Shown: positions 1 to 11,104 of the stretch, piece by piece
Layout: each line of letters begins with the position of its first letter
Position numbering within the stretch: the stretch's first letter is position 1
Assembly: GCA_030630395.1 (NCBI GenBank)
Contig: DAOVNE010000009.1
Location: 1 to 14,723 of the forward strand
DNA: 14,723 bases
Origin: Candidatus Eiseniibacteriota bacterium
Lineage (GTDB): Bacteria; Joyebacterota; Joyebacteria; Joyebacterales; Joyebacteraceae
Reading direction: 5' to 3'
Position numbers and translations under genes: made by a program
The notes under the pieces: model-generated
What the model was told of the DNA's origin: nothing
Databases searched by the model: none
What the model saw: the letters and a program-made list of their open reading frames with translations, nothing else

Positions 1-84
1 CAGCTCTTCTTCTGTGCTTGAGAAGAAAAGATGGGATACGTCAGCGAGGCTCTTCGGCGTCTTTTCGCTTGTGCTGCTGCTCAT
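1..84 (-). CDS. Hypothetical protein, N-terminal 28 residues only (cut by window edge)
   Basis: An ATG at 84-82 opens a frame that runs off the left edge. The visible protein begins MSSSTSEKTPKSLADVSHLF and continues with a Ser/Glu-rich stretch. An in-frame TGA lies two codons upstream of this ATG, so it is the first possible start. The ribosome binding site is weak. The gene follows parA on the same strand after a 45-nt gap, so the two are probably co-transcribed. The N-terminus is polar and has no signal peptide, which fits a cytoplasmic protein. A short Ser/Thr/Lys-rich leader followed by a hydrophobic SLADVSHLFF patch could be a docking peptide for the neighbouring ATPase, but this is inference. 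I do not recognise the family. The opposite strand is also open here and would encode a hydrophobic segment, which is the main alternative reading. Confidence 0.55.
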   Translation of the reverse strand, partial: MSSSTSEKTPKSLADVSHLFFSSTEEEL

Positions 85-129: not shown

Positions 130-1251
130 CTAGCCGCGCCTGTACACCTCTATTATGCAATCCTCATTCGGATCTGTTCTATTCCCGTTCGCGGGGTCCG
201 GTCTCCACGCCCCATCGACAACGAACTTGTACAGATGGCGTCCCGGCCCAAGATCCACCGTCGTATGCCACACACCATTGGATTCGCGCTTGAGCACAAC
301 ACCATGCTCGCGATCCCAGTTGTTGAAGCTCCCGATCAGCTCGACATCGTTGGCCTCTGGAGCCACGAGTGAGAAGAGGATCCCCCCTTCCACGAAGTGC
401 GGACCGGGTTGCGACAGAATCCAGTCGTCCATCCCGCGTTCCAGCCCTGACGTCTCGGCCTCCTTCACGGGCTCGAACTCCTCGCTCGTGAGGCGCTCCT
501 CGTCCGCGATCACCTCCTGGGTCAGCGCCTTGTAGTCGCGGGCACCGGTGCACGTCCGCGCGTAGTGCGAAATCGCGACTCCCCAGTTCGCGGCCTCCCG
601 GAAGCGAACGGTCCGTCTGATGACGGTATCAAACATCTCGCGCCCGAAGCGGATCTGGGCCTCACGAAGAAACTCCTGCGAAAAGCGAGTTCGCTTGTCG
701 AACATCGTGAGAAGCACGCGGATGCGCTTCTTGAGACCGAGCTGCTCACGCACAAGGTTGATTGAATCTGTGACCTTGAGGGCGCCGTGCAGTGAGTAGA
801 ACGAAGGTTCCATCACCACCATGGCCTCGTCGCAGGCTACGATGGCATTGAAGGTCAGAAGTCCCACGCTCGGCGGACAGTCTACGATTGCGTAGTCGAA
901 GTTGCCCTCTACGACGTCGAGCTTTCGTCTGAGACGATTCTCCCTATCCGGCTGGCCCGACAGCTGCTGCTCGGCAGCCGACAACACCACGTTCGATGGA
1001 ACCACGTGCAGGTTCTCAGTAACCTCCACTGACACGTCATCGATCGACACCTGTGGGTTCATCAGAACGTCGTAGGTGGAGGTGGTGAGGTTATCCGTGT
1101 CGACACCGAGGCCGATCGAAGCATGGGACTGCGGATCGCAGTCCACGAGCAGGACTCTCTTCCCGAAATCGGCAAGATACGATGCGAGGTTCACTGCGGT
1201 AGTTGTTTTGCCGCAACCACCCTTCTGGTTGACGACCGCAATCGACCGCAT
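130..1251 (-). CDS. ParA/Soj-type partitioning ATPase with C-terminal CBM48-like glycogen-binding domain
   Basis: This 373-residue protein has two parts. Residues 1-250 form a ParA/MinD P-loop ATPase: deviant Walker A KGGCGKTT at 10-17 with signature Lys10 and catalytic Lys15, Walker A' VDCDPQ at 36-41, and Walker B AIVDCPP at 121-127. Such ATPases dimerise on ATP, bind DNA or membrane, and position chromosomes, plasmids or protein assemblies. After an acidic linker (251-283), residues 284-370 match the CBM48/AMPK-beta early-set fold: VELIGSFNNWD near 303, then GPGRHLYKFVVDGAW at 335-349 and an Asp/Asn-rich end. That fold binds glycogen or starch. A plain chromosomal ParA is about 250-260 residues, so the tail is extra. 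The start has a near-perfect ribosome binding site (AAGGAGGT, 8 nt upstream), and a TTGACA-type promoter lies in the gap after pmbA. No parB or parS-like site is visible. The ATPase call is firm; glucan binding by the tail is predicted from fold motifs only. Confidence 0.93.
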   Translation of the reverse strand: MRSIAVVNQKGGCGKTTTAVNLASYLADFGKRVLLVDCDPQSHASIGLGVDTDNLTTSTYDVLMNPQVSIDDVSVEVTENLHVVPSNVVLSAAEQQLSGQPDRENRLRRKLDVVEGNFDYAIVDCPPSVGLLTFNAIVACDEAMVVMEPSFYSLHGALKVTDSINLVREQLGLKKRIRVLLTMFDKRTRFSQEFLREAQIRFGREMFDTVIRRTVRFREAANWGVAISHYARTCTGARDYKALTQEVIADEERLTSEEFEPVKEAETSGLERGMDDWILSQPGPHFVEGGILFSLVAPEANDVELIGSFNNWDREHGVVLKRESNGVWHTTVDLGPGRHLYKFVVDGAWRPDPANGNRTDPNEDCIIEVYRRG

Positions 1252-1371: not shown

Positions 1372-2709
1372 CTACCCGCACGTGATGGTCACACCGTCGA
1401 ACGATATGTACGGGACAACGACGCTGAAGAGACGCTCCGTCTCTCGCGAGACAGCCGTGATGCCCGGGAGAAGCTCGAATATGTCGCCCGCGATCATGGT
1501 CCCAGAGAGTGGCTCTGCCAGCTTGCCCCCCCGAATCATGTGGCCTCCCTTGACGACTCCCGAGAAGTCCCCGCTGACCGGATCGACGTTCCCGGAGAAC
1601 CTCGTCACGAGAACTCCTCGATCCGTTCCCGCTATCATGTCCTCGAGAGCGGTCTCCCCCGCCTTGACGACGACGTTGGTCGTGGAGACAGACGGAACCG
1701 ATGAGGCCCCTCCGCCGGCGTGACCGTTGCTCGCTCTGCCGTCCTTCCGTCCCGTGTAGGAGTCGAATATGTAGTTCCGGAGCACTCCGCTTTCGACCAG
1801 CGGCAGGGTCTTGGGAGCGATGCCCTCGCGGTCGAACGATGTGGTCGCGAATCCGCCCGGAAGGGCCGCATCGTCCGTGACCGTCAGGATGTCACCGGCG
1901 ACGCTCTTCCCCAGGAGATCACAGAACCTGCTCGTTCCCTTCTGCACGGCAGACGCATTCACGGAGTGTTCGATCGGATAGACGACGATGTCGGCCGCGG
2001 CCTTGGGCGCGAGTATAACCGTTCCATTGAAGCTCTCACCTTTGACCGCGCCCAGCGAATCCACGACCTTGGCCGCAAACACCCTCGCCACAGACGCCGG
2101 GTCGATTCCGGAGGCCGAACGGGAGCTGTCAAACTGGTAGTCGAACGATGAGATCTCCTCGCCGTCCCTCGCCATGCCCATGATGTAGCAGTAGATGCTG
2201 CTCTCAGTCTCTATGGCCCGCACGCCCTTTGAACTCACGATCGCCTTCGTCCCGAACTCCGCGGCCACTCCGCCGCCATCGATCGTCACTCGCTCATCGT
2301 ACTGCCTCGAAGCGTGAAGCATCGCCAGGGCGTCTTCGACAGCGTGCTCCACACCGTAGGACTCCATTGCCGGATCGAAGATCCCGTCTCGCTTTGAGAT
2401 CGGTGTCGGATCCGGAAGCCCGTTGTGGCTGTCGGGAGGAGCCGCGGCCGCTATACCGAGCGCGCGCTCCACCGACGTGCGTGCGTCTTCCTCCCTGAGG
2501 CTATTGACATAGGCGAACCCAAGACTGCCACCCCGGAAGACCCTTATGCCCAACCCGTCCGTTCCCATGCTCTTTGCGATCTGGATGTCGTTCTTCTGCA
2601 GATCGGCATCGACCTGTCTGCCGGTCACGGCATATGCCTCGGCCTCATCCGCACCGGCGCTCTTGGCCATCTCCACGGCCGCATCGCAGATCATCAGAAG
2701 ATCGTTCAT
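1372..2709 (-). CDS. pmbA: PmbA/TldE, non-catalytic partner of the TldD metalloprotease
   Basis: This 445-residue protein is the second half of a TldD/PmbA pair. The family forms a TldD-TldE heterodimer that degrades unfolded or modified peptides; in E. coli it matures microcin B17 and helps remove the CcdA antitoxin. PmbA shares the TldD fold but lacks zinc ligands. Here the segment matching TldD's HEAIGH reads HSVNAS, as expected for the inactive partner. Other family traits are the N-terminal AxxAGADEAEAY region, GRKDGRASNGHAGGG in the C-terminal half, and SGDFSGVVKGGHMIRGGK near the end. The open frame extends upstream, but the ATG at 2709 is chosen because it has GGGGAGA about 6 nt upstream and gives the usual family length (about 450); the upstream extension is Arg-rich and unlike the family. 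The gene lies 101 nt after tldD on the same strand. Confidence 0.93.
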   Translation of the reverse strand: MNDLLMICDAAVEMAKSAGADEAEAYAVTGRQVDADLQKNDIQIAKSMGTDGLGIRVFRGGSLGFAYVNSLREEDARTSVERALGIAAAAPPDSHNGLPDPTPISKRDGIFDPAMESYGVEHAVEDALAMLHASRQYDERVTIDGGGVAAEFGTKAIVSSKGVRAIETESSIYCYIMGMARDGEEISSFDYQFDSSRSASGIDPASVARVFAAKVVDSLGAVKGESFNGTVILAPKAAADIVVYPIEHSVNASAVQKGTSRFCDLLGKSVAGDILTVTDDAALPGGFATTSFDREGIAPKTLPLVESGVLRNYIFDSYTGRKDGRASNGHAGGGASSVPSVSTTNVVVKAGETALEDMIAGTDRGVLVTRFSGNVDPVSGDFSGVVKGGHMIRGGKLAEPLSGTMIAGDIFELLPGITAVSRETERLFSVVVPYISFDGVTITCG

Positions 2710-2810
2710 CCGCTTCTCCCCTCGTGGTTCGTGGTCTTGCCCGTCAGACTCGTTTTCAGTCACTACCAGTGTGTCCCGGCGCGAGAGCCGTGTAGAGAGC
2801 GCCGAGTGAT

Positions 2811-4199
2811 CTAGCGCCCGCCGACGACGACCTTGCACCGGACATGGGGCCCGCCCCCATCCACTTTCGCTGGCTGTCCCTTGCCGCAGTGACCGGTTCC
2901 TATCGCCCACTCGAAATCGGAGCTCACGCTGTCTACACTCTTCAGCACATCAAACGCATCGCCGGAGATCGAGGCGCCACGCAGGAGCTTCCCAACCTTG
3001 CCGTTCTTGATCTCGTAGGCCTCCTGCACGCCGAACATGAACTCGGCGTTTGAGTCGGCCTGACCGCTTCCCGCACCCCGCATCAGAAGCCCGTTCGCCA
3101 CTCCCCCAACCATCTCGTCAAACGAATCCTCCCCTGGCTCGAGGTAGGTGTTCCGCATTCTAATGAGCGGCTCGTCCCGGTAGAGCCAGGCTCTCGCGTT
3201 CCCGGTCGGCGCGACGCCGAACCTCGCCGCCGACTCGCGATCGTGCAGGTACGACGTCAGAACGCCACCGTCAATGATGACGGTCTTCTGGGCGGGCACT
3301 CCCTCGTCGTCGACCAGGACCACTCCGCCCGCGCACTTCACCCCCATGTAGACGGGTCCGCTGTCGACCAGCGTCACGAGTTCGCTGGCAACTTGCTTCC
3401 CCAGCTTTCCCGCCGCGGCAGAGCCCGAGAGAACGAAGTCGGCCTCCACGGTGTGGCCTATCGCCTCATGCGCAAGCAGGCCGACAAGATCGGGCGCCAT
3501 AACGACCGTGGTCATGCCTCCCGGAGCGTACGGCGCTGAGAGAAGGTCTACCGCCACCCTTCCTACGTGTTCCGAGAGCGACTCCGGCGTCCATCGCGTG
3601 AAGAGATCCGACCATCCTCCGGTGACTCCGTCACCGTGATAGCTGAAGGTCATCTCGTCGCCCTCTGCGGCGACGGCGCTCGCGACGAACTCCAGTTTCG
3701 TGTCCTCTATATGAGCGTCGGCCCCATCAGTTGAGACGATCCACTTCTCATCCACGAGTTCGGTGTACCTGCACATGGCGGAGCGGATCTTGGAGGACGA
3801 CTCACGTGCGCGCTTCTCTGTCTCCACGACGAGGGACGTCTTCTCCTCGGTCGAGTGCGAAGCGACATCCTCTGCGTCACCGCTTCTGAAGTCACCGACG
3901 GCAAGCTCACAGTCGGCCAGTCGTTCGATTTTCTCGCTCCTGCCCCCGGACGACTGCTCCGCGGCTACCGTAGCGTCCCGGACCGCCGTCTTGATGCTCG
4001 ATACGTCCATGTTCGACGTACTGGAGAACCCCCACGTTCCATTCACGAGGACTCTGACGCCGACCCCGCAGGTCTTCCTGTAGGCGGCCGCCTCAAGCTC
4101 CCCCTTGCGGACGACGATCTGAAGCGAGCGGCGGTCGTGCATCCGGAGTTCAGTCCAGTGCTTCGCATCCGCCACCACCATTTTGAGCACATCCCGCAT
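2811..4199 (-). CDS. tldD: TldD, catalytic zinc metalloprotease subunit
   Basis: This 462-residue protein is the catalytic subunit of the TldD/TldE protease. The family motif HEAIGHTVEAD is complete: His244, Glu245 and His249 provide metal ligands and the catalytic base. A conserved cysteine in GHCGKGQ (Cys438), near the C-terminus, is the expected further zinc ligand. The enzyme is cytoplasmic and takes an extended peptide into the cavity between the two subunits. The length agrees with the family (about 480). The ATG at 4199 has GGGGGAG about 7 nt upstream and starts only 24 nt after the amylase stop codon, so amylase, tldD and pmbA look like one transcript. No RiPP precursor, toxin-antitoxin pair or other known substrate is encoded in the window, so its substrate here is unknown. 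Confidence 0.96.
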   Translation of the reverse strand: MRDVLKMVVADAKHWTELRMHDRRSLQIVVRKGELEAAAYRKTCGVGVRVLVNGTWGFSSTSNMDVSSIKTAVRDATVAAEQSSGGRSEKIERLADCELAVGDFRSGDAEDVASHSTEEKTSLVVETEKRARESSSKIRSAMCRYTELVDEKWIVSTDGADAHIEDTKLEFVASAVAAEGDEMTFSYHGDGVTGGWSDLFTRWTPESLSEHVGRVAVDLLSAPYAPGGMTTVVMAPDLVGLLAHEAIGHTVEADFVLSGSAAAGKLGKQVASELVTLVDSGPVYMGVKCAGGVVLVDDEGVPAQKTVIIDGGVLTSYLHDRESAARFGVAPTGNARAWLYRDEPLIRMRNTYLEPGEDSFDEMVGGVANGLLMRGAGSGQADSNAEFMFGVQEAYEIKNGKVGKLLRGASISGDAFDVLKSVDSVSSDFEWAIGTGHCGKGQPAKVDGGGPHVRCKVVVGGR

Positions 4200-4223: not shown

Positions 4224-6611
4224 TCATCGGCTCTGAGGCACAAGAACGGCTCCCCCGAACGGACCGAGACGAACAGTAACAACGACCCCATCTCCCACCT
4301 TCTCGATCGGGTACTGCTCACCGTCCAGAAGGCTATGCATCGAACCCGACGAGCCCCCGGCTGCCAGGAAGGCAGCGGCGCTCGCGGCCCCTATGGGAAT
4401 ATGCACGGTCACCTCACGACCCCGCGCGTTTAGGGCGACCACGGCCACATCCTGATCGCTCTTCCTCAGGAACGCGTAGACGCCGTCGTCGGCAAGAAGC
4501 GTCTCGAACGACCCGCGTCTGAGACACACATGCTCCTGTCTGATTGCCAGGAACTCCCGGAAGTCATCGTGGAGTGCGACGCGCGGTGGATCCTCGGCCC
4601 ACTCCCAGTTGAACGTCCTGCGGCAGTCCGGATCGCCACCGCCATCCATCAGCACCTCGTCCCCGTAGTAGATGTGAGGAGCTCCAACGTTTGTCGCGGC
4701 GAATAGAAACGCCAGACGGACCTTCCTCGCGTCTCCGCCGCAGACTCGCAGGAACCGCTCTGTGTCGTGGCTGCCGACCAGGTTCATCATGGCTTGGGCG
4801 CCCTCGTCGGTGTAGGTGAACCTGCCCAGGGCGAGCGCCCTGCCGAAATCCGGTGCCTTCATGCTCCCCTCGGCGATGAAACTCGTCACCGGGTCACGAA
4901 AGGACTTGTAGTTCATGACGGCGTCGAAATAGCGCCCGTTCACGTGGTCGGGAGAGGCGCCCCAGAGCTCTCCGACGATGTAGGCGTCAGGCTTGACGCC
5001 CTTCACGCGCTCGCGGAAGAGCTCCCAAAACCAGAACGGCACCTCGCCGGCAACATCGAGGCGATAGCCATCGACGCCGGCATCGACAAGCCAGTACTCG
5101 GCCATGTCGAGGAGGTGGTCAACGAGCGGCCAGTTCGGTTCCGCCTCGGCAATGTCCGTGATCGAGTTCTCCTCCGGGTTCGGGCGAGAGAGGTCGAAAT
5201 TCAGATTGGGCATCTGGCCGAATCCCCACCAGCAGTCGTAGTCGTCCCCCCCACCGCTCAGCTGTCCGTCCGGAAGCGGCCAGCGGTGCCACTCGTACCA
5301 GTCCCAGTACTCGGACTCGTCGCCTTTCTCCCGGGTGTCCACGAAGGCCCAGTGCGTCTCACCCGTGTGGTTGATGGCGAGATCGAGCACGACCCGCATG
5401 CCCCGCTCATGGCAGTCATCGACAAAGGCCGCGAACTCCTCGTTCGTCCCCATGTGCGGGTCGATGATGCGATAGTCAGCGGCATCGTACTTGTGGCTGC
5501 TCTTCGACTCGAAGATCGGGTTCAGGTAGATGATGGTTATCCCAAGGTCCTCAAGGTAGTCGAGTCCGTCGCGGAGTCCGGCGACGTCCCCGCCATAGAA
5601 CGAGTACCAGTCCGGCTTCCCGTCCGTGCGGTACGGACTCGCGGAGAGCCCGGACACGTCGTGCCAGTCGTCGACAAGGTGGAAGTACTCATCGTCGAGC
5701 TTCCCCGATTCCGGCAGGTCGGTGAGCCCTTCGTAGTACGCCTCGGAGAAGTCCGGATCGTTGTCCGGGTTCCCATTGGCGAAGCGCTCGGGGAAGATCT
5801 GGTAGAAGACACCATCCTTGACCCAGTCGGGCGTCTCGAAGATGACGTTCTCATCTACTACGAAATCGTAGTGCCCCACACCCTCCTCTGCGCCGGCCTC
5901 GGCAATCCCGTCCGGTCCAAGCCAGATCACCGTCTCGCCGTCGACAAGCGCGAACCGATACTCAAGGCGCTCATCCAGTTCAAGTCTGCGCGCGTAGTAG
6001 TCGTGTTGCCCATCGCTACCGGTAAGCTCCATCCGAAACCCGGAGGAAGCTCCGGAGACGAGCCAGATCGAGACGCGCTCGATGTCCCCCGCCCAGGTCT
6101 TCAGCCGCAGGGTGACAGTCCCGTCGGCATTGAGAGCACGGCTCCAAGCTCCCGTGCCGTGTTCGAGACCCTCGGTCAGTACCTGACCGTCTCCGCGACT
6201 GAGGATTATCGATTCGAACGTGTCGTCGACAACGATGACCGAGTTGTTCCCCCCGAATCCGTCCGGGTGAAAGCCCTTGGCGGTCATGTCGGTGATCCAC
6301 GCGCCGTCCGCGACGAACTTGTACTGGTACTCCCCCGCGGGAAGCGGAAGCACAGCCTGGAATCGGCCGGACACTGCCCGCATCGGGGTGGCGTCGGTAC
6401 TCCAGTCATTGAATGTCCCGGCAAGGAAGACCTGTCGGTAGGTCTCCTCTGTTTCGAAATCGAACCGGACCTTCTTGAGAATGCCGGCCTGGTCCTTGTC
6501 GTCAGAGACGTCTGCAGAGACGTTTGCCGAACCCGCGGCTGCGAAGAGAAGAAGCGCCGCCAATGCGACGATGAAGGCGGTCGTGCCCCTCAGTGCGCGT
6601 GACGATAGCAT
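4224..6611 (-). CDS. Secreted GH13 alpha-amylase-family glycosidase with N-terminal CBM48 and CBM34-like domains
   Basis: This 795-residue protein hydrolyses or rearranges alpha-glucosidic bonds outside the cytoplasm. A Sec signal peptide covers residues 1-29 (hydrophobic 12-26, likely cleavage after GSA). Residues about 44-128 form a CBM48-like early-set domain with VFLAGTFNDW and GEYQYKFVADGAW. Residues about 131-255 look like the CBM34-type N-domain of neopullulanases and cyclomaltodextrinases. The GH13 barrel starts at GVFYQIFPERFANG (267) and carries all four signature regions: DLAINH (410-415), GYRLDV with nucleophile Asp519, VGELW with acid/base Glu548, and GSHD with transition-state stabiliser Asp616. 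A beta-sandwich C-domain follows from about 700. The architecture favours a neopullulanase- or maltogenic-amylase-like enzyme, but specificity cannot be fixed by eye. The start has AAAGGAGG about 6 nt upstream. A 24-nt gap precedes tldD. Confidence 0.95.
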   Translation of the reverse strand: MLSSRALRGTTAFIVALAALLLFAAAGSANVSADVSDDKDQAGILKKVRFDFETEETYRQVFLAGTFNDWSTDATPMRAVSGRFQAVLPLPAGEYQYKFVADGAWITDMTAKGFHPDGFGGNNSVIVVDDTFESIILSRGDGQVLTEGLEHGTGAWSRALNADGTVTLRLKTWAGDIERVSIWLVSGASSGFRMELTGSDGQHDYYARRLELDERLEYRFALVDGETVIWLGPDGIAEAGAEEGVGHYDFVVDENVIFETPDWVKDGVFYQIFPERFANGNPDNDPDFSEAYYEGLTDLPESGKLDDEYFHLVDDWHDVSGLSASPYRTDGKPDWYSFYGGDVAGLRDGLDYLEDLGITIIYLNPIFESKSSHKYDAADYRIIDPHMGTNEEFAAFVDDCHERGMRVVLDLAINHTGETHWAFVDTREKGDESEYWDWYEWHRWPLPDGQLSGGGDDYDCWWGFGQMPNLNFDLSRPNPEENSITDIAEAEPNWPLVDHLLDMAEYWLVDAGVDGYRLDVAGEVPFWFWELFRERVKGVKPDAYIVGELWGASPDHVNGRYFDAVMNYKSFRDPVTSFIAEGSMKAPDFGRALALGRFTYTDEGAQAMMNLVGSHDTERFLRVCGGDARKVRLAFLFAATNVGAPHIYYGDEVLMDGGGDPDCRRTFNWEWAEDPPRVALHDDFREFLAIRQEHVCLRRGSFETLLADDGVYAFLRKSDQDVAVVALNARGREVTVHIPIGAASAAAFLAAGGSSGSMHSLLDGEQYPIEKVGDGVVVTVRLGPFGGAVLVPQSR

Positions 6612-6772: not shown

Positions 6773-6928
6773 CTACTCCTCTTCGAACTGATCCTTGCCC
6801 GCACCACAAACCGGACAGACCCAGTCGTCGGGGAGCGCATCGAATGCCGTCCCAACCACAACGCCGTTATCCGGATCACCCTGGTCCGGGTCGTATATGT
6901 ACCCACAGATGAGGCACTTGTACTTCAT
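6773..6928 (-). CDS. Rubredoxin
   Basis: This 51-residue protein has the complete rubredoxin Fe(Cys)4 signature: Cys5-x-x-Cys8 in CLICGY and Cys38-x-x-Cys41 in CPVCGA, with the family-typical [11 protein letters not shown] and [11 protein letters not shown] segments. It is a small cytoplasmic electron carrier. The open frame extends further upstream, but the ATG at 6928 is correct because GGAGGGATCCC precedes it directly and the protein then has the standard rubredoxin length. The gene follows the second ferritin-like gene after 19 nt. By context it is the electron donor to one or both of the diiron proteins, so the module corresponds to a rubrerythrin split into separate diiron and rubredoxin polypeptides. 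Confidence 0.97.
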
Positions 6929-6947
6929 GGGATCCCTCCAGTTACGG

Positions 6948-7457
6948 CTACTTAGCCTTCTCCTTGTCCTTGAGGATCTTGTCCAGACGCTTCGTGATCT
7001 GGACGACGTGACTCTTCTCCTCATCGATCAGACGCGCGAGAGCCTTCTTCGCCCCGCTCTTGGTGTTCACCCGAAACGCCTCCGTGTAGTACAGAACGGC
7101 GTCTTTCTCGACTGCCAGAGCGAGTTCCAGTGCGGTCTCGGCGTTGTACTTCCTTCTAGTGACCTTCGCCATCTTGGCGATACCCCTGAAGATCCCGCCA
7201 TCCACGAGTGAGCTGATGTAGGCCGACGTCTCCTTGTCCTGCTCCGCCGTCTGCTTGCCCATCCCCCCTGAGGTCTCGAGCTCAAGGGTCTCGAAGAAGG
7301 CCAGATGCTGCTTTTCATCTCGCGCGAGCCTTCTGAAGATTCGCTTCGTGGCCGCGTCATCTGCTTTCTCAGCCATCGTCGTGTAGAAATCCAGACCCGC
7401 CTCTTCGATGGCTATACCGACGCGATAGATCTCGTCCTCACTCAAATACTCGATCAT
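6948..7457 (-). CDS. Ferritin-like diiron protein (rubrerythrin-family four-helix bundle)
   Basis: This 169-residue mostly helical protein has two copies of the E...ExxH pattern that builds a carboxylate-bridged diiron site: Glu19 in IEEAG, Glu48-x-x-His51 in DEKQH, Glu117 in VEKDA, and Glu147-x-x-His150 in EEKSH. This is the rubrerythrin-like ferritin superfamily, whose members reduce hydrogen peroxide or oxygen in anaerobes. It lacks the C-terminal rubredoxin domain of classical rubrerythrin, and a free rubredoxin gene follows 19 nt later. The C-terminus is Lys-rich. The ATG at 7457 has TTGGAGG about 7 nt upstream, and the gene starts 20 nt after the preceding ferritin-like gene, so all three are clearly one operon. 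Whether it acts as a peroxidase, in iron storage or as an oxygen sensor cannot be decided from sequence. Confidence 0.9.
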
Positions 7458-7477
7458 CAGGAACCTCCAAGTGCAGC

Positions 7478-7930
7478 CTAGTTCTCCGTCAGAATGTGCT
7501 CGTCGTACTCCTTCTCAAGAGCAAGCTTGTGCTTGGCCTCTTCCTGAGCCAGGAACTCGAACAACTGTCTGATCTCGGGCTCGTCACTTATAGATGCAAG
7601 TCGGGAGTAGAGGTTGTGCGCGACTTCCTCACGCTTCATCGCGATCGTGAGCAGGTCCTGGTAGCTCATGTCGGCCGTGATCTGGACATCGTCGGTGTAG
7701 TCGGAGATCTTGAGGTCCGGGATCTCCTTCAGGCTCGTCTCAGGAAGGCTCTCAGAATCGATGCCCATGAGCTTCTGTTTGTGTCCTTCTTCCTGCTTGG
7801 CGAGACCAAGAAGCATGCCTCGCACGTTCGCGTGCTTGACCATGCCCGCCGCCGCAGTGTACGCGTCGACCGCTTCCTGCTCCTTCAGAATGGCAAACGC
7901 CACAATTTCCCCAAAGCTTTCCTTCTCCAT
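7478..7930 (-). CDS. Ferritin-like diiron protein, first gene of the rubredoxin operon
   Basis: This 150-residue helical protein also has two metal-binding pairs: Glu19 in KEQEAVDAY, Glu47-x-x-His50 in QEEGH, Glu101/Glu102 in KREEVAH, and Glu131-x-x-His134 in QEEAKH. It belongs to the same rubrerythrin-like superfamily as the next gene, but the two are clearly diverged rather than recent duplicates. A 6-codon longer start at 7948 is possible. I chose the ATG at 7930 because the sequence between the two (GAGGAGAGACCG) is itself the ribosome binding site, and the upstream ATG has none. A candidate promoter lies about 95-125 nt upstream, and a palindrome shared with the divergent regulator gene lies about 180 nt upstream. 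Likely role: scavenging peroxide or oxygen with electrons from the rubredoxin. Confidence 0.88.
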   Translation of the reverse strand: MEKESFGEIVAFAILKEQEAVDAYTAAAGMVKHANVRGMLLGLAKQEEGHKQKLMGIDSESLPETSLKEIPDLKISDYTDDVQITADMSYQDLLTIAMKREEVAHNLYSRLASISDEPEIRQLFEFLAQEEAKHKLALEKEYDEHILTEN

Positions 7931-8024
7931 CGGTCTCTCCTCGTGCATGCGGCAACGCCATCGAACAGCCAGAGCCAGTGGTTGTGCGACAGCCCCTCAC
8001 CAATGCTGTCTGGAGTTCGCGCCA

Positions 8025-9480: not shown

Positions 9481-9573
9481 GCGTGGGCGCGCTTAATCTT
9501 CTCTATACAGCGCGTGGGCGCGCTTAGTCTTCTCTATAAAGCGCGTGGGCGCGCTCAATCTCGTTTATGTAGT
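9481..9573. repeat. 31-bp tandem repeat, three units, overlapping the 3' end of the peptidase gene
   Basis: Units start at 9481, 9512 and 9543. The first two differ at 2 of 31 positions; the third begins with the same 13 bases (GCGTGGGCGCGCT) and then diverges, with about 7 mismatches overall. The peptidase stop codon lies in the middle unit, so the last codons of the gene (Leu-Tyr-Arg-Glu-Asp-stop) and the stop are duplicated just beyond it. Each GCGCGCCCACGCGC block can fold as a 5-bp stem with a 4-nt loop. Confidence 0.8.
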
Positions 9574-11104
9574 AGGTCGAGTCGAGACCCTCGAATCCCA
9601 TTCTCTGTGCAATCTCCTCAACGGACAGCTCGGCCCCGAAACCCCACAGATCTCGCATGAATGCTCCGGCGTCCTCCGAGTTCCACCAGTGCGCCCCGAA
9701 GCGCTCGGTGAGCGCATGCCTCAGCTGGGCAGCGAGGAACCACGCCTCCAGATAGTTGACGCCGTAGAAGTCCTCGTTGCTGTCGAGGTACGCAAACTCC
9801 GGATGCTCAACTGGGACGAGTCGGGATTCGCCCATGATCCGCGCGTACTCCTCCCTAAGCTCCTCATCATTCAGCTCCTGCGCGTGAAGCAGGCGCTCGT
9901 AGCGGAAGAGCCCGGCGTAGTACCGCGCGCTGCCTAGATCGCTCATGAGCTGATTCTTGAGATAGCGGCGTCTGACATCAGGATCGGGAATGAGGTCATA
10001 ATCCTCCAGGAACAGAGGATCGGACAGGAGTCCTTCAGGAAGATATGCGTAGGTTTCGGTAACACCGTAGTCACCCAGCCGCTGGAACTCGTACTCATCC
10101 ACGCGCACGAGGCCGTCGTGCAGTGCATGTCCCATCTCGTGAAACAGGCTCTCGTAGTCGTCAACCCCGCCTGACGGTTTGACAAGCACGCGGACATCCT
10201 CTCCGGGCACGATGGGGTATGTGGCGGGTCGGGGTTCCTTCTCGGGTCTGTCTTCGACATCGATGTCGATCATCGGGAGCGCCGAGAGATCGATGCCCAT
10301 TCCCGACAGCGTCTCCTCGAGCAGTGGGATCATGCCATCCGCGGGGAAGTACTCATCGAACTCCGCACCACGGAAGATCCGACCTCTATCGTAGTCGGGC
10401 ACCTCCGTGACATCCACACCAAGCACATCGTGCGCCGCGTCGTTCGTGAGTTCAAAGTAGATGTCTCGCGTGGCGTCGAGGAATGCGACAACCGTCTCCT
10501 CCAGACGGTCGTGGCTGATACCTCGTCTCGCGGCTTCAAACTCGCCCAGGCCGGAGTAACCAAGCTCGCAGAGCCGCTCGTGCCCCTCCCGGACGGCACG
10601 CGCGCGGGGCGGGTTCAGCTCCTCGACGCTGAAGCGCCCGATGGCCAGGTAGTAGTCCTCTCTCAGTGCGCTATCGGTCTCATTGTAGAGCGCGATCCCC
10701 GCATCGCGATAGGCGAGCGTATCTCCACCCACGATGATGTGCCCACTGGTCTCTTTGTTCAGAATCTCATCCTCGATTGCCACCAGTTCATCGTAGATGG
10801 CCGTCCCGGCGAGATCGTAGAAGAGGTAGTCGAGCGCCTTCCTTCTGCGAACATCGCTCTCGGCGTTTCGCATCCGGTCCACGTACGGGGCGAGGTCCGG
10901 ATCGGTCAGGTCCGAGTACTCACTCCAGATCTCAGCAAGTCTCGATTCCTCACCGTAAGCGTCGGTGTTGTAGTACGCCTCCATTATCCTCGCCGACATC
11001 TCATCAGAACGAGACCTGACGTCATCCAGATCGAAGCCGGTCGAACATCCGGACAGCAGTAGAGCGACTGCGATAAGCAGGGACACGATCACCGGTCTAT
11101 TCAT
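9524..11104 (-). CDS. Lipoprotein HExxH metallopeptidase, M3/M2-like
   Basis: This 526-residue protein is a membrane-anchored zinc peptidase. Its signal peptide ends in a lipobox, LLLSGC, with Cys20 as the lipidated residue, so it should face the periplasm or be surface-exposed. The catalytic motif FHEMGHALH gives ligands His322 and His326 and base Glu323; Glu350 in YGVTETYAYL, 24 residues later, is the likely third ligand. This gluzincin spacing and the mainly helical sequence fit oligopeptidases of family M3 (thimet/PepF) or the ACE-like family M2; I cannot choose between them by eye. The ATG overlaps the preceding nucleotidyltransferase gene by 8 nt (11097-11104), implying coupled translation. 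The C-terminal codons and stop lie in a 31-bp tandem repeat, so the last residues may vary between strains. Confidence 0.88.
   Translation of the reverse strand: MNRPVIVSLLIAVALLLSGCSTGFDLDDVRSRSDEMSARIMEAYYNTDAYGEESRLAEIWSEYSDLTDPDLAPYVDRMRNAESDVRRRKALDYLFYDLAGTAIYDELVAIEDEILNKETSGHIIVGGDTLAYRDAGIALYNETDSALREDYYLAIGRFSVEELNPPRARAVREGHERLCELGYSGLGEFEAARRGISHDRLEETVVAFLDATRDIYFELTNDAAHDVLGVDVTEVPDYDRGRIFRGAEFDEYFPADGMIPLLEETLSGMGIDLSALPMIDIDVEDRPEKEPRPATYPIVPGEDVRVLVKPSGGVDDYESLFHEMGHALHDGLVRVDEYEFQRLGDYGVTETYAYLPEGLLSDPLFLEDYDLIPDPDVRRRYLKNQLMSDLGSARYYAGLFRYERLLHAQELNDEELREEYARIMGESRLVPVEHPEFAYLDSNEDFYGVNYLEAWFLAAQLRHALTERFGAHWWNSEDAGAFMRDLWGFGAELSVEEIAQRMGFEGLDSTYYINEIERAHALYRED

What the first reader, a model, noticed from the sequence alone, without database searches (positions are those of the whole stretch)
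130..1251. ParA ATPase fused to a CBM48-like glycogen-binding domain
ParA-family ATPases normally consist of one P-loop domain of about 250 residues. Here a complete ParA (deviant Walker A, A' and B all intact) continues through an acidic linker into a module with the CBM48/AMPK-beta pattern: GSFNNWD, GxHxYKFVVDGAW and an Asp/Asn-rich end. In AMPK-beta and branching enzymes this fold binds alpha-glucan. A positioning ATPase with a glucan-binding tail could partition or place storage granules, or tie chromosome or protein positioning to carbohydrate reserves. The fusion is seen in the sequence; the function is inferred. No ParB partner is visible nearby.
Basis: partly seen in the sequence, partly recalled or inferred. 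Interest (0 to 1): 0.78.

Follow-up and report, generated by a model that had tools for sequence, protein, structure and literature searches.

The report
ParA partition ATPase with glycogen-binding tail
Bacteria of many phyla carry a ParA-type positioning motor whose tail looks built to grip glycogen, usually next to a gene for a likely partner protein, hinting at a way to place or share out sugar stores that I could not find described.

Summary
Confirmed and extended. The 373-aa gene (130-1251, minus strand) is an intact Soj-type ParA, a low-confidence linker and an AMPK-type CBM48 (Pfam 6.8e-13). It is no artefact: 18 of 20 searched genomes of its phylum have it (13 of 13 near-complete, one copy each), and the 80 best loci kept from a species-wide scan all have it, under more than ten phylum labels. 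In 94 aligned copies three CBM tryptophans are invariant. 'No ParB partner' is wrong: the window's first 84 bases encode the start of one. In 18 of 18 loci of this lineage (window included) and 35 of 76 distant loci the next gene opens with a motif (LGRGLEDVSHLFLS and variants) whose head resembles ParB's ParA-binding peptide; the rest is not ParB (a MinD-like P-loop domain or a nuclease fold without its catalytic residues). The chromosomal ParA-ParB pair is separate. Best reading: an extra ParA positioning system coupled to alpha-glucan, by carrying or sensing it. Glucan binding and cargo are untested; glucan-enzyme neighbours occur in some lineages only, and one lineage has ParA and partner without the CBM. 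Eight literature searches found no description.

The parts
130..1251 (-). ParA-CBM48 fusion gene, 373 aa + stop
496..1251 (-). ParA (Soj-type) ATPase domain, residues 1-252
1201..1224 (-). deviant Walker A, residues 10-17 KGGCGKTT
   Evidence: residues 8-15 invariant in 78 of 78 rows; NQKGGCGK was itself a scan pattern, so this is partly selected
406..495 (-). acidic linker, residues 253-282, mostly low confidence
   Evidence: pLDDT below 50 at 255-264 and 266-274
133..405 (-). AMPK-type CBM48 domain, residues 283-373 (core 299-362 at 166-357)
316..318 (-). Trp312 (AMPK-beta1 W100 position, numbering recalled)
   Evidence: 94 of 94 rows
268..270 (-). Trp328
   Evidence: 94 of 94 rows
226..228 (-). 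Lys342 (AMPK-beta1 K126 position, numbering recalled)
   Evidence: R 45, K 41, Q 8 of 94 rows
205..207 (-). Trp349 (AMPK-beta1 W133 position, numbering recalled)
   Evidence: 94 of 94 rows
1..84 (-). first 28 codons of the partner gene (MinD-like P-loop protein with N-terminal motif), cut by the contig end
   Evidence: a 90% match to the rest of the G004 partner is at G000:C62:2819-3757
19..63 (-). partner motif KTPKSLADVSHLFFS
   Evidence: motif in the same place in 17 of 17 near relatives with downstream sequence
1372..2910 (-). TldE/PmbA-like gene upstream on the same strand (start codon uncertain)
2811..4199 (-). TldD-like gene
4224..6611 (-). GH13 amylase-family enzyme with its own AMPK1_CBM; hydrophobic N-terminus, read by eye, suggests export
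   Evidence: family found near ParA-CBM in 7 of 17 lineage loci, window included, several of them too short to reach it

Best explanation
This is the ParA of an extra, non-chromosomal positioning system. SHOWN by sequence: a Soj-type ParA with an AMPK-type CBM48 tail; an adjacent partner whose N-terminus carries a short motif headed like ParB's ParA-binding peptide but with its own tail (DVSHLFLS); both found under more than ten phylum labels; a separate chromosomal ParA-ParB pair. INFERRED: ATP-ParA dimers coat the nucleoid (the Arg at 187 is invariant); the CBM48 holds alpha-glucan, so that ParA tethers glycogen (or a glucan-bound enzyme complex) to the nucleoid; the partner peptide enters the ParA dimer pocket, triggers hydrolysis and releases the tether, so that glucan stores are spread and shared between daughters. 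Here the glucan-binding part would sit on the ATPase itself and not on an adaptor. An allosteric version, in which glucan loading only tunes ParA, is the nearest rival.
For: W312, W328, W349, F309, Y341 and D352 in 94 of 94 rows, position 342 R/K in 86 of 94, position 364 N/D in 94 of 94. Partner motif: a leave-one-out matrix scores 12 bits or more within 400 nt downstream in 36 of 76 distant loci (35 after dropping L122, where it falls in a different protein), against 8 positions in 7 loci elsewhere among about 1.9 million two-strand base positions; 7 of 13 further loci outside the training set; 17 of 17 near relatives. In 34 of 35 the third position is R/K, and LG[RK]G[LIMF] occurs in 12 of 35 against 1 of 872 other genes. 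Control: 9 of 11 canonical ParA loci have LG[RK]G[LI] in the same place and none scores above 0 with the matrix; in this genome that gene is ParB by Pfam. PMC12462528 (passages and section 8 read): in Myxococcus, hydrophobic residues L11, L15, L18, I19 of ParB's peptide are needed for ParA binding, R13 is its central basic residue, and the ParA pocket is V116, L150, L152, L155, L187, L192. By the alignment these are Q95, V129, L131, F134, L166, L171 here; Q95 is family-specific (85 of 94; V/L/I/S in 8 canonical rows). Glucan-enzyme neighbours: GH57 in 10 and GlgB in 2 of 90 distant loci, searched with three query enzymes only.
Against: No binding, ATPase or localisation data. G103 and G237 (one genus) have a related ParA (48% identity) and a motif partner but no CBM, so the CBM is not needed in every version. 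A second copy in G150 lost W349 (L159) and L164 has F at position 328. Pocket position 171 is variable (L 44, I 11, C 11, T 10 of 94) and Q95 is polar, so the ParB pocket is only partly kept. Only the head of the motif resembles ParB; the matrix does not recognise ParB. Glucan-gene neighbours are limited to few lineages. 13 of 76 distant loci show no recognisable partner, one of them with 354 nt of downstream sequence, and 6 of 13 further loci do not pass. NQKGGCGK was a scan pattern, so those loci are biased towards that Walker A.
Confidence: 0.42

Rival explanations
1. Glucan sensor, not glucan carrier: CBM48 occupancy by glycogen tunes ParA dimerisation or ATPase activity, as the AMPK-beta CBM lets a kinase read glycogen (recalled), and the real cargo is whatever the partner protein binds.
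For: Partners differ widely in their bodies (MinD-like P-loop, nuclease fold without catalytic residues, HTH, Cys-rich) while the motif stays, so the cargo may differ. The CBM is absent in one lineage that has the partner.
Against: No partner body points to a common cargo; the CBM follows a low-confidence, probably flexible linker, which suits tethering as well as sensing.
Confidence: 0.28
2. Cell-surface polysaccharide system: ParA-CBM regulates synthesis or export of an exopolysaccharide, as BcsQ does for cellulose, and the CBM48 touches a nascent glucan or a glycosyltransferase.
Against: In the window's lineage the families scanned next to it are TldD/TldE, a transglutaminase and others, with no glycan synthase (the window has a sugar-type nucleotidyl transferase about 10 kb away). 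NCBIfam BcsQ is not reached (66.6 bits, cut-off 157.85).
Confidence: 0.12
3. The CBM48 no longer binds sugar and serves as a protein-protein module; the system positions an unrelated cargo.
For: The CBM is absent in G103/G237 and altered in L159 and L164. AMPK1_CBM occurs 8 times in this genome, once as a pair without an enzyme domain.
Against: Binding-site Trp invariant in 94 of 94 rows, with best-segment identities to the window's protein down to 35%.
Confidence: 0.15

Closest known systems
ParABS chromosome segregation (Soj/Spo0J)
   Same: Soj-type ParA fold and motifs; next-door partner with a short basic-aliphatic N-terminal peptide
   Different: ParA carries a CBM48; no ParB domain found in the partners scanned; motif tail DVSHLFLS in place of ALI; a true ParA-ParB pair lies elsewhere in the same genome, beside MnmG and RsmG
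McdAB carboxysome positioning and other ParA/MinD cargo systems (PMC10241942: section 6 and passages read; PMC6328274: listing only)
   Same: an additional ParA-type ATPase beside the chromosomal one, with its own partner
   Different: in those the cargo link is, as recalled, a separate adaptor; here a glucan-binding domain is part of the ATPase. 'glycogen' and 'carbohydrate' occur 0 times in the main text of PMC10241942
AMPK-beta glycogen-binding domain (AMPK1_CBM)
   Same: the W100, K126 and W133 positions kept (alignment; numbers recalled)
   Different: joined to a ParA, not to a kinase subunit
BcsQ/BcsR cellulose regulators
   Same: ParA-like fold linked to polysaccharide
   Different: as recalled BcsQ has no CBM48; NCBIfam BcsQ model not reached
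NucS/EndoMS nuclease C-terminal domain
   Different: no E/D-x-K in any of 13 aligned rows (read by eye), so probably not a nuclease

Membership tests
ParA/Soj ATPase | deviant Walker A, A', B | tested here: met
   K10 to K15, D37, D39, D124 invariant in 78 of 78 rows (partly selected by the scan pattern)
ParA/Soj ATPase | Soj-like fold | tested here: met
ParA/Soj ATPase | non-specific DNA-binding Arg (role recalled) | tested here: met
   R187 in 94 of 94 rows and 8 of 8 canonical
ParA/Soj ATPase | NCBIfam ParA equivalog NF041546 over its cut-off | tested here: not met
   111.4 bits against 180; this model is 203 positions long, and none of the 25 NCBIfam rows shown reached its cut-off
ParABS partition system | ParB-domain CTPase partner | tested here: not met
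   no ParB domain in the partner proteins scanned by Pfam, whereas the canonical locus has it
ParABS partition system | ParA-binding peptide at the partner's N-terminus | tested here: inconclusive
   head LG[RK]G[LIMF] in 12 of 35, basic third position in 34 of 35; the tail differs and the matrix does not score ParB
ParABS partition system | parS centromere sites | not tested
   no search made
CBM48 / AMPK1_CBM | profile match above cut-off | tested here: met
   49.1 bits against 26.8; CBM_48 44.2 against 22.4
CBM48 / AMPK1_CBM | glucan-binding Trp/Lys/Asn residues | tested here: met
   W312 and W349 94 of 94; position 342 R/K 86 of 94; position 364 N 58, D 36, D in the window (AMPK numbering recalled, N150 lies outside the printed alignment)
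CBM48 / AMPK1_CBM | binds alpha-glucan | not testable with these tools
   needs a pull-down
BcsQ | NCBIfam equivalog cut-off | tested here: not met
   66.6 bits against 157.85; Pfam CBP_BcsQ is over its cut-off but also hits canonical ParA
NucS nuclease (partner body) | catalytic E/D-x-K (recalled) | tested here: not met
   0 of 13 rows of alignment A3 (read by eye)

The most novel reading that the evidence does not exclude
A widespread bacterial machine that partitions glycogen: a ParA that holds the storage polysaccharide by its own CBM48 and spreads it over the nucleoid under control of a ParB-like activating peptide. It would be, to my knowledge, the first ParA system whose cargo is a polysaccharide.
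Probability: 0.3. Interest if true: 0.92.

Novelty: new variant of a known kind. Interest (0 to 1): 0.76.

Why it matters
How bacteria place and share out glycogen did not turn up in my searches. A conserved ParA subfamily with a glucan-binding tail and a dedicated partner gives named genes and residues with which to test it, and could widen the range of ParA cargo systems from DNA and protein bodies to a polymer of sugar, or to a sugar-sensing switch.

Tried and rejected
Assembly artefact or chance: rejected. One shared motif for Omnitrophota f2 (IYEHLAKIYLD) and motif A: by eye they line up, but a matrix trained on A scores f2 hardly above ordinary genes (22 f2 genes, -7.4 to 4.8, on average above 69% of genes), so they are kept apart. 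ParB homology of the partner body: none found. f44 was thought to share the f5 fold; hhalign does not support it. Hits of the window's GH13 in distant loci cover only its CBM part and mostly fall on ParA-CBM itself; they were dropped as neighbour evidence. In the ParA tree 3 of 11 canonical loci dropped out because my pattern missed them, 10 near-lineage copies were left out as redundant, and the method was 'quick'. No CBM48 structure appears among the rows, since the ParA half fills the list; the CBM rests on sequence profiles. Alignment A2 held a mistaken two-base stretch and was not used. One search, a first motif scan, mis-assigned partner frames that open upstream and was replaced.

Papers. 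I saw listings (for example 20 of 184 papers and 20 of 96) and nothing there described the fusion; PMC5814915 and PMC11046441 were looked into by passages, which do not treat it. Subscription papers are mostly not held.

Full report

NOT AN ARTEFACT. 17 of 19 same-family relatives hold the fusion; the two without it are incomplete assemblies. In the phylum 18 of 20 genomes, the window's own included, have exactly one copy, 13 of 13 near-complete ones. Phylum labels of those records include Latescibacterota, Zixiibacteriota, Omnitrophota, Thermodesulfobacteriota, Rokuibacteriota, Acidobacteriota, Krumholzibacteriota, Planctomycetota, Myxococcota, Nitrospirota, Auribacterota, Eiseniibacteriota, Pseudomonadota and Effluviviacota (metagenome bins, so labels may err). 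One scan pattern was NQKGGCGK, which biases the Walker A. In a sample of 386 genomes not chosen by that pattern, 17 of the 370 outside the family matched at 1e-66, and 15 of these carry the tail; four of the 15 are records also seen, judged by equal contig length, and fusions more distant than the cut-off, such as that in G043, are not counted.

THE SUGAR SITE. In 94 aligned fusions (77 distant, 17 near) W312, W328, W349, F309, Y341 and D352 are invariant; position 342 (AMPK K126) is R, K or Q (45, 41, 8); position 364 is N or D (58, 36). Exceptions seen later: the second G150 copy lacks W349 and L164 has F at position 328.

THE PARTNER. Its first 27 residues are identical to the start of a 337-residue protein of relative G004; residues 25-331 of that protein match contig C62 of the window's assembly at 90%. 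In all 17 near relatives with downstream sequence the motif is in place (13 by strict pattern; three variants; G015), so 18 of 18 with the window. In distant loci the downstream proteins are of many families, yet 36 of 76 have a motif scoring 12 bits or more within 400 nt downstream (35 without L122), against 8 such positions, in 7 loci, elsewhere among about 1.9 million. Six more show weaker variants read by eye (L050, L072, L078, L090, L101, L128), 22 instead have upstream f2 with an IYEHLAKIYLD-type start, and 13 have no recognised partner (L066, with only 354 nt downstream, L073, L092, L093, L098, L103, L110, L116, L117, L125, L134, L135, L136). L104, with 152 nt downstream, was not counted. 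In 13 further loci found by whole-genome search 7 pass and 6 do not (four duplicates dropped). Many loci are close kin, so counts are not independent events.

WHAT THE MOTIF RESEMBLES. Canonical ParA loci of other genomes, and of this one (G000:C279, beside MnmG and RsmG, with ParB by Pfam), have an LG[RK]G[LI] peptide at the same place (9 of 11). Motif A shares the head (12 of 35 exactly; basic third residue in 34 of 35; 1 of 872 other genes has the exact head) and differs in the tail; the matrix scores none of the 11 canonical loci above 0. In Myxococcus, ParB L11, L15, L18 and I19 with R13 form the ParA-binding peptide, and ParA V116, L150, L152, L155, L187 and L192 the pocket (PMC12462528, section 8 and passages). 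By the alignment, counted by hand, these are Q95, V129, L131, F134, L166 and L171 here. Q95 stands in 85 of 94 fusions, in place of V, L, I or S in eight canonical ParAs, which also have N where 84 of 84 fusions have H43; position 171 is variable. That a changed pocket goes with a changed peptide is an inference.

EVOLUTION. A quick tree puts 84 fusion ParAs on one side of a branch (SH-aLRT 98) from 8 canonical ParAs. G103 and G237 have a related ParA (48%) and a motif partner but no CBM by Pfam; whether it was lost or never gained is not known, as they were not in the tree.

GLUCAN LINKS. GH57 enzymes stand beside ParA-CBM in 10 of 90 distant loci (all with f2) and an N-terminal GlgB part in 2. 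The window has a GH13 enzyme with its own CBM48, near ParA-CBM in 7 of 17 lineage loci. Glycogen synthase (GT5) is in 18 of 20 phylum genomes, though not found in the window's own incomplete one; since 12 of 14 control genomes have it too, this is weak evidence.

VERDICT. Identity and conservation are firm; the partner link is strong by position and sequence; glucan cargo or sensing is an inference that simple bench tests can decide. Eight literature searches of open-licence PMC papers, seen as listings, showed no description; they miss most subscription journals.

Noticed in passing
4224-6611 (-): GH13 amylase-family enzyme with a hydrophobic N-terminus and an AMPK1_CBM, in the same orientation as ParA-CBM.
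   Followed up: partly
G000:C7 (L056:1636-2538 -): 301-residue protein with two CBM48/AMPK1_CBM copies and no enzyme domain found; 8 AMPK1_CBM matches in this genome.
   Followed up: partly
9524-11104 (-): 526-residue protein with an HEMGH motif and a lipoprotein-like start (by eye); only a sub-threshold Peptidase_M3 match (17.5 bits, cut-off 27).
   Followed up: no
6773-7948 (-): Rubredoxin and two rubrerythrin-like genes in a row.
   Followed up: no
L165, L166: ParA close to this subfamily with the motif partner but an unrelated tail of about 70 residues in place of the CBM.
   Followed up: partly
L159: Second ParA-CBM copy in genome G150 that lost W349 (VDGVQT).
   Followed up: no
L097, L106 and other Omnitrophota loci: Upstream protein f2: N-terminal EIYEHLAKIYLD-type start, a hydrophobic stretch, then an unassigned C-terminal domain; downstream f3 has a Lys-rich start and a weak EF-Tu domain 2 match.
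   Followed up: partly
L073 and L082: L073 is labelled Methanomassiliicoccales archaeon but holds a GlgB part 89% identical to one in a Desulfobacterota record; label or binning may be wrong.
   Followed up: no
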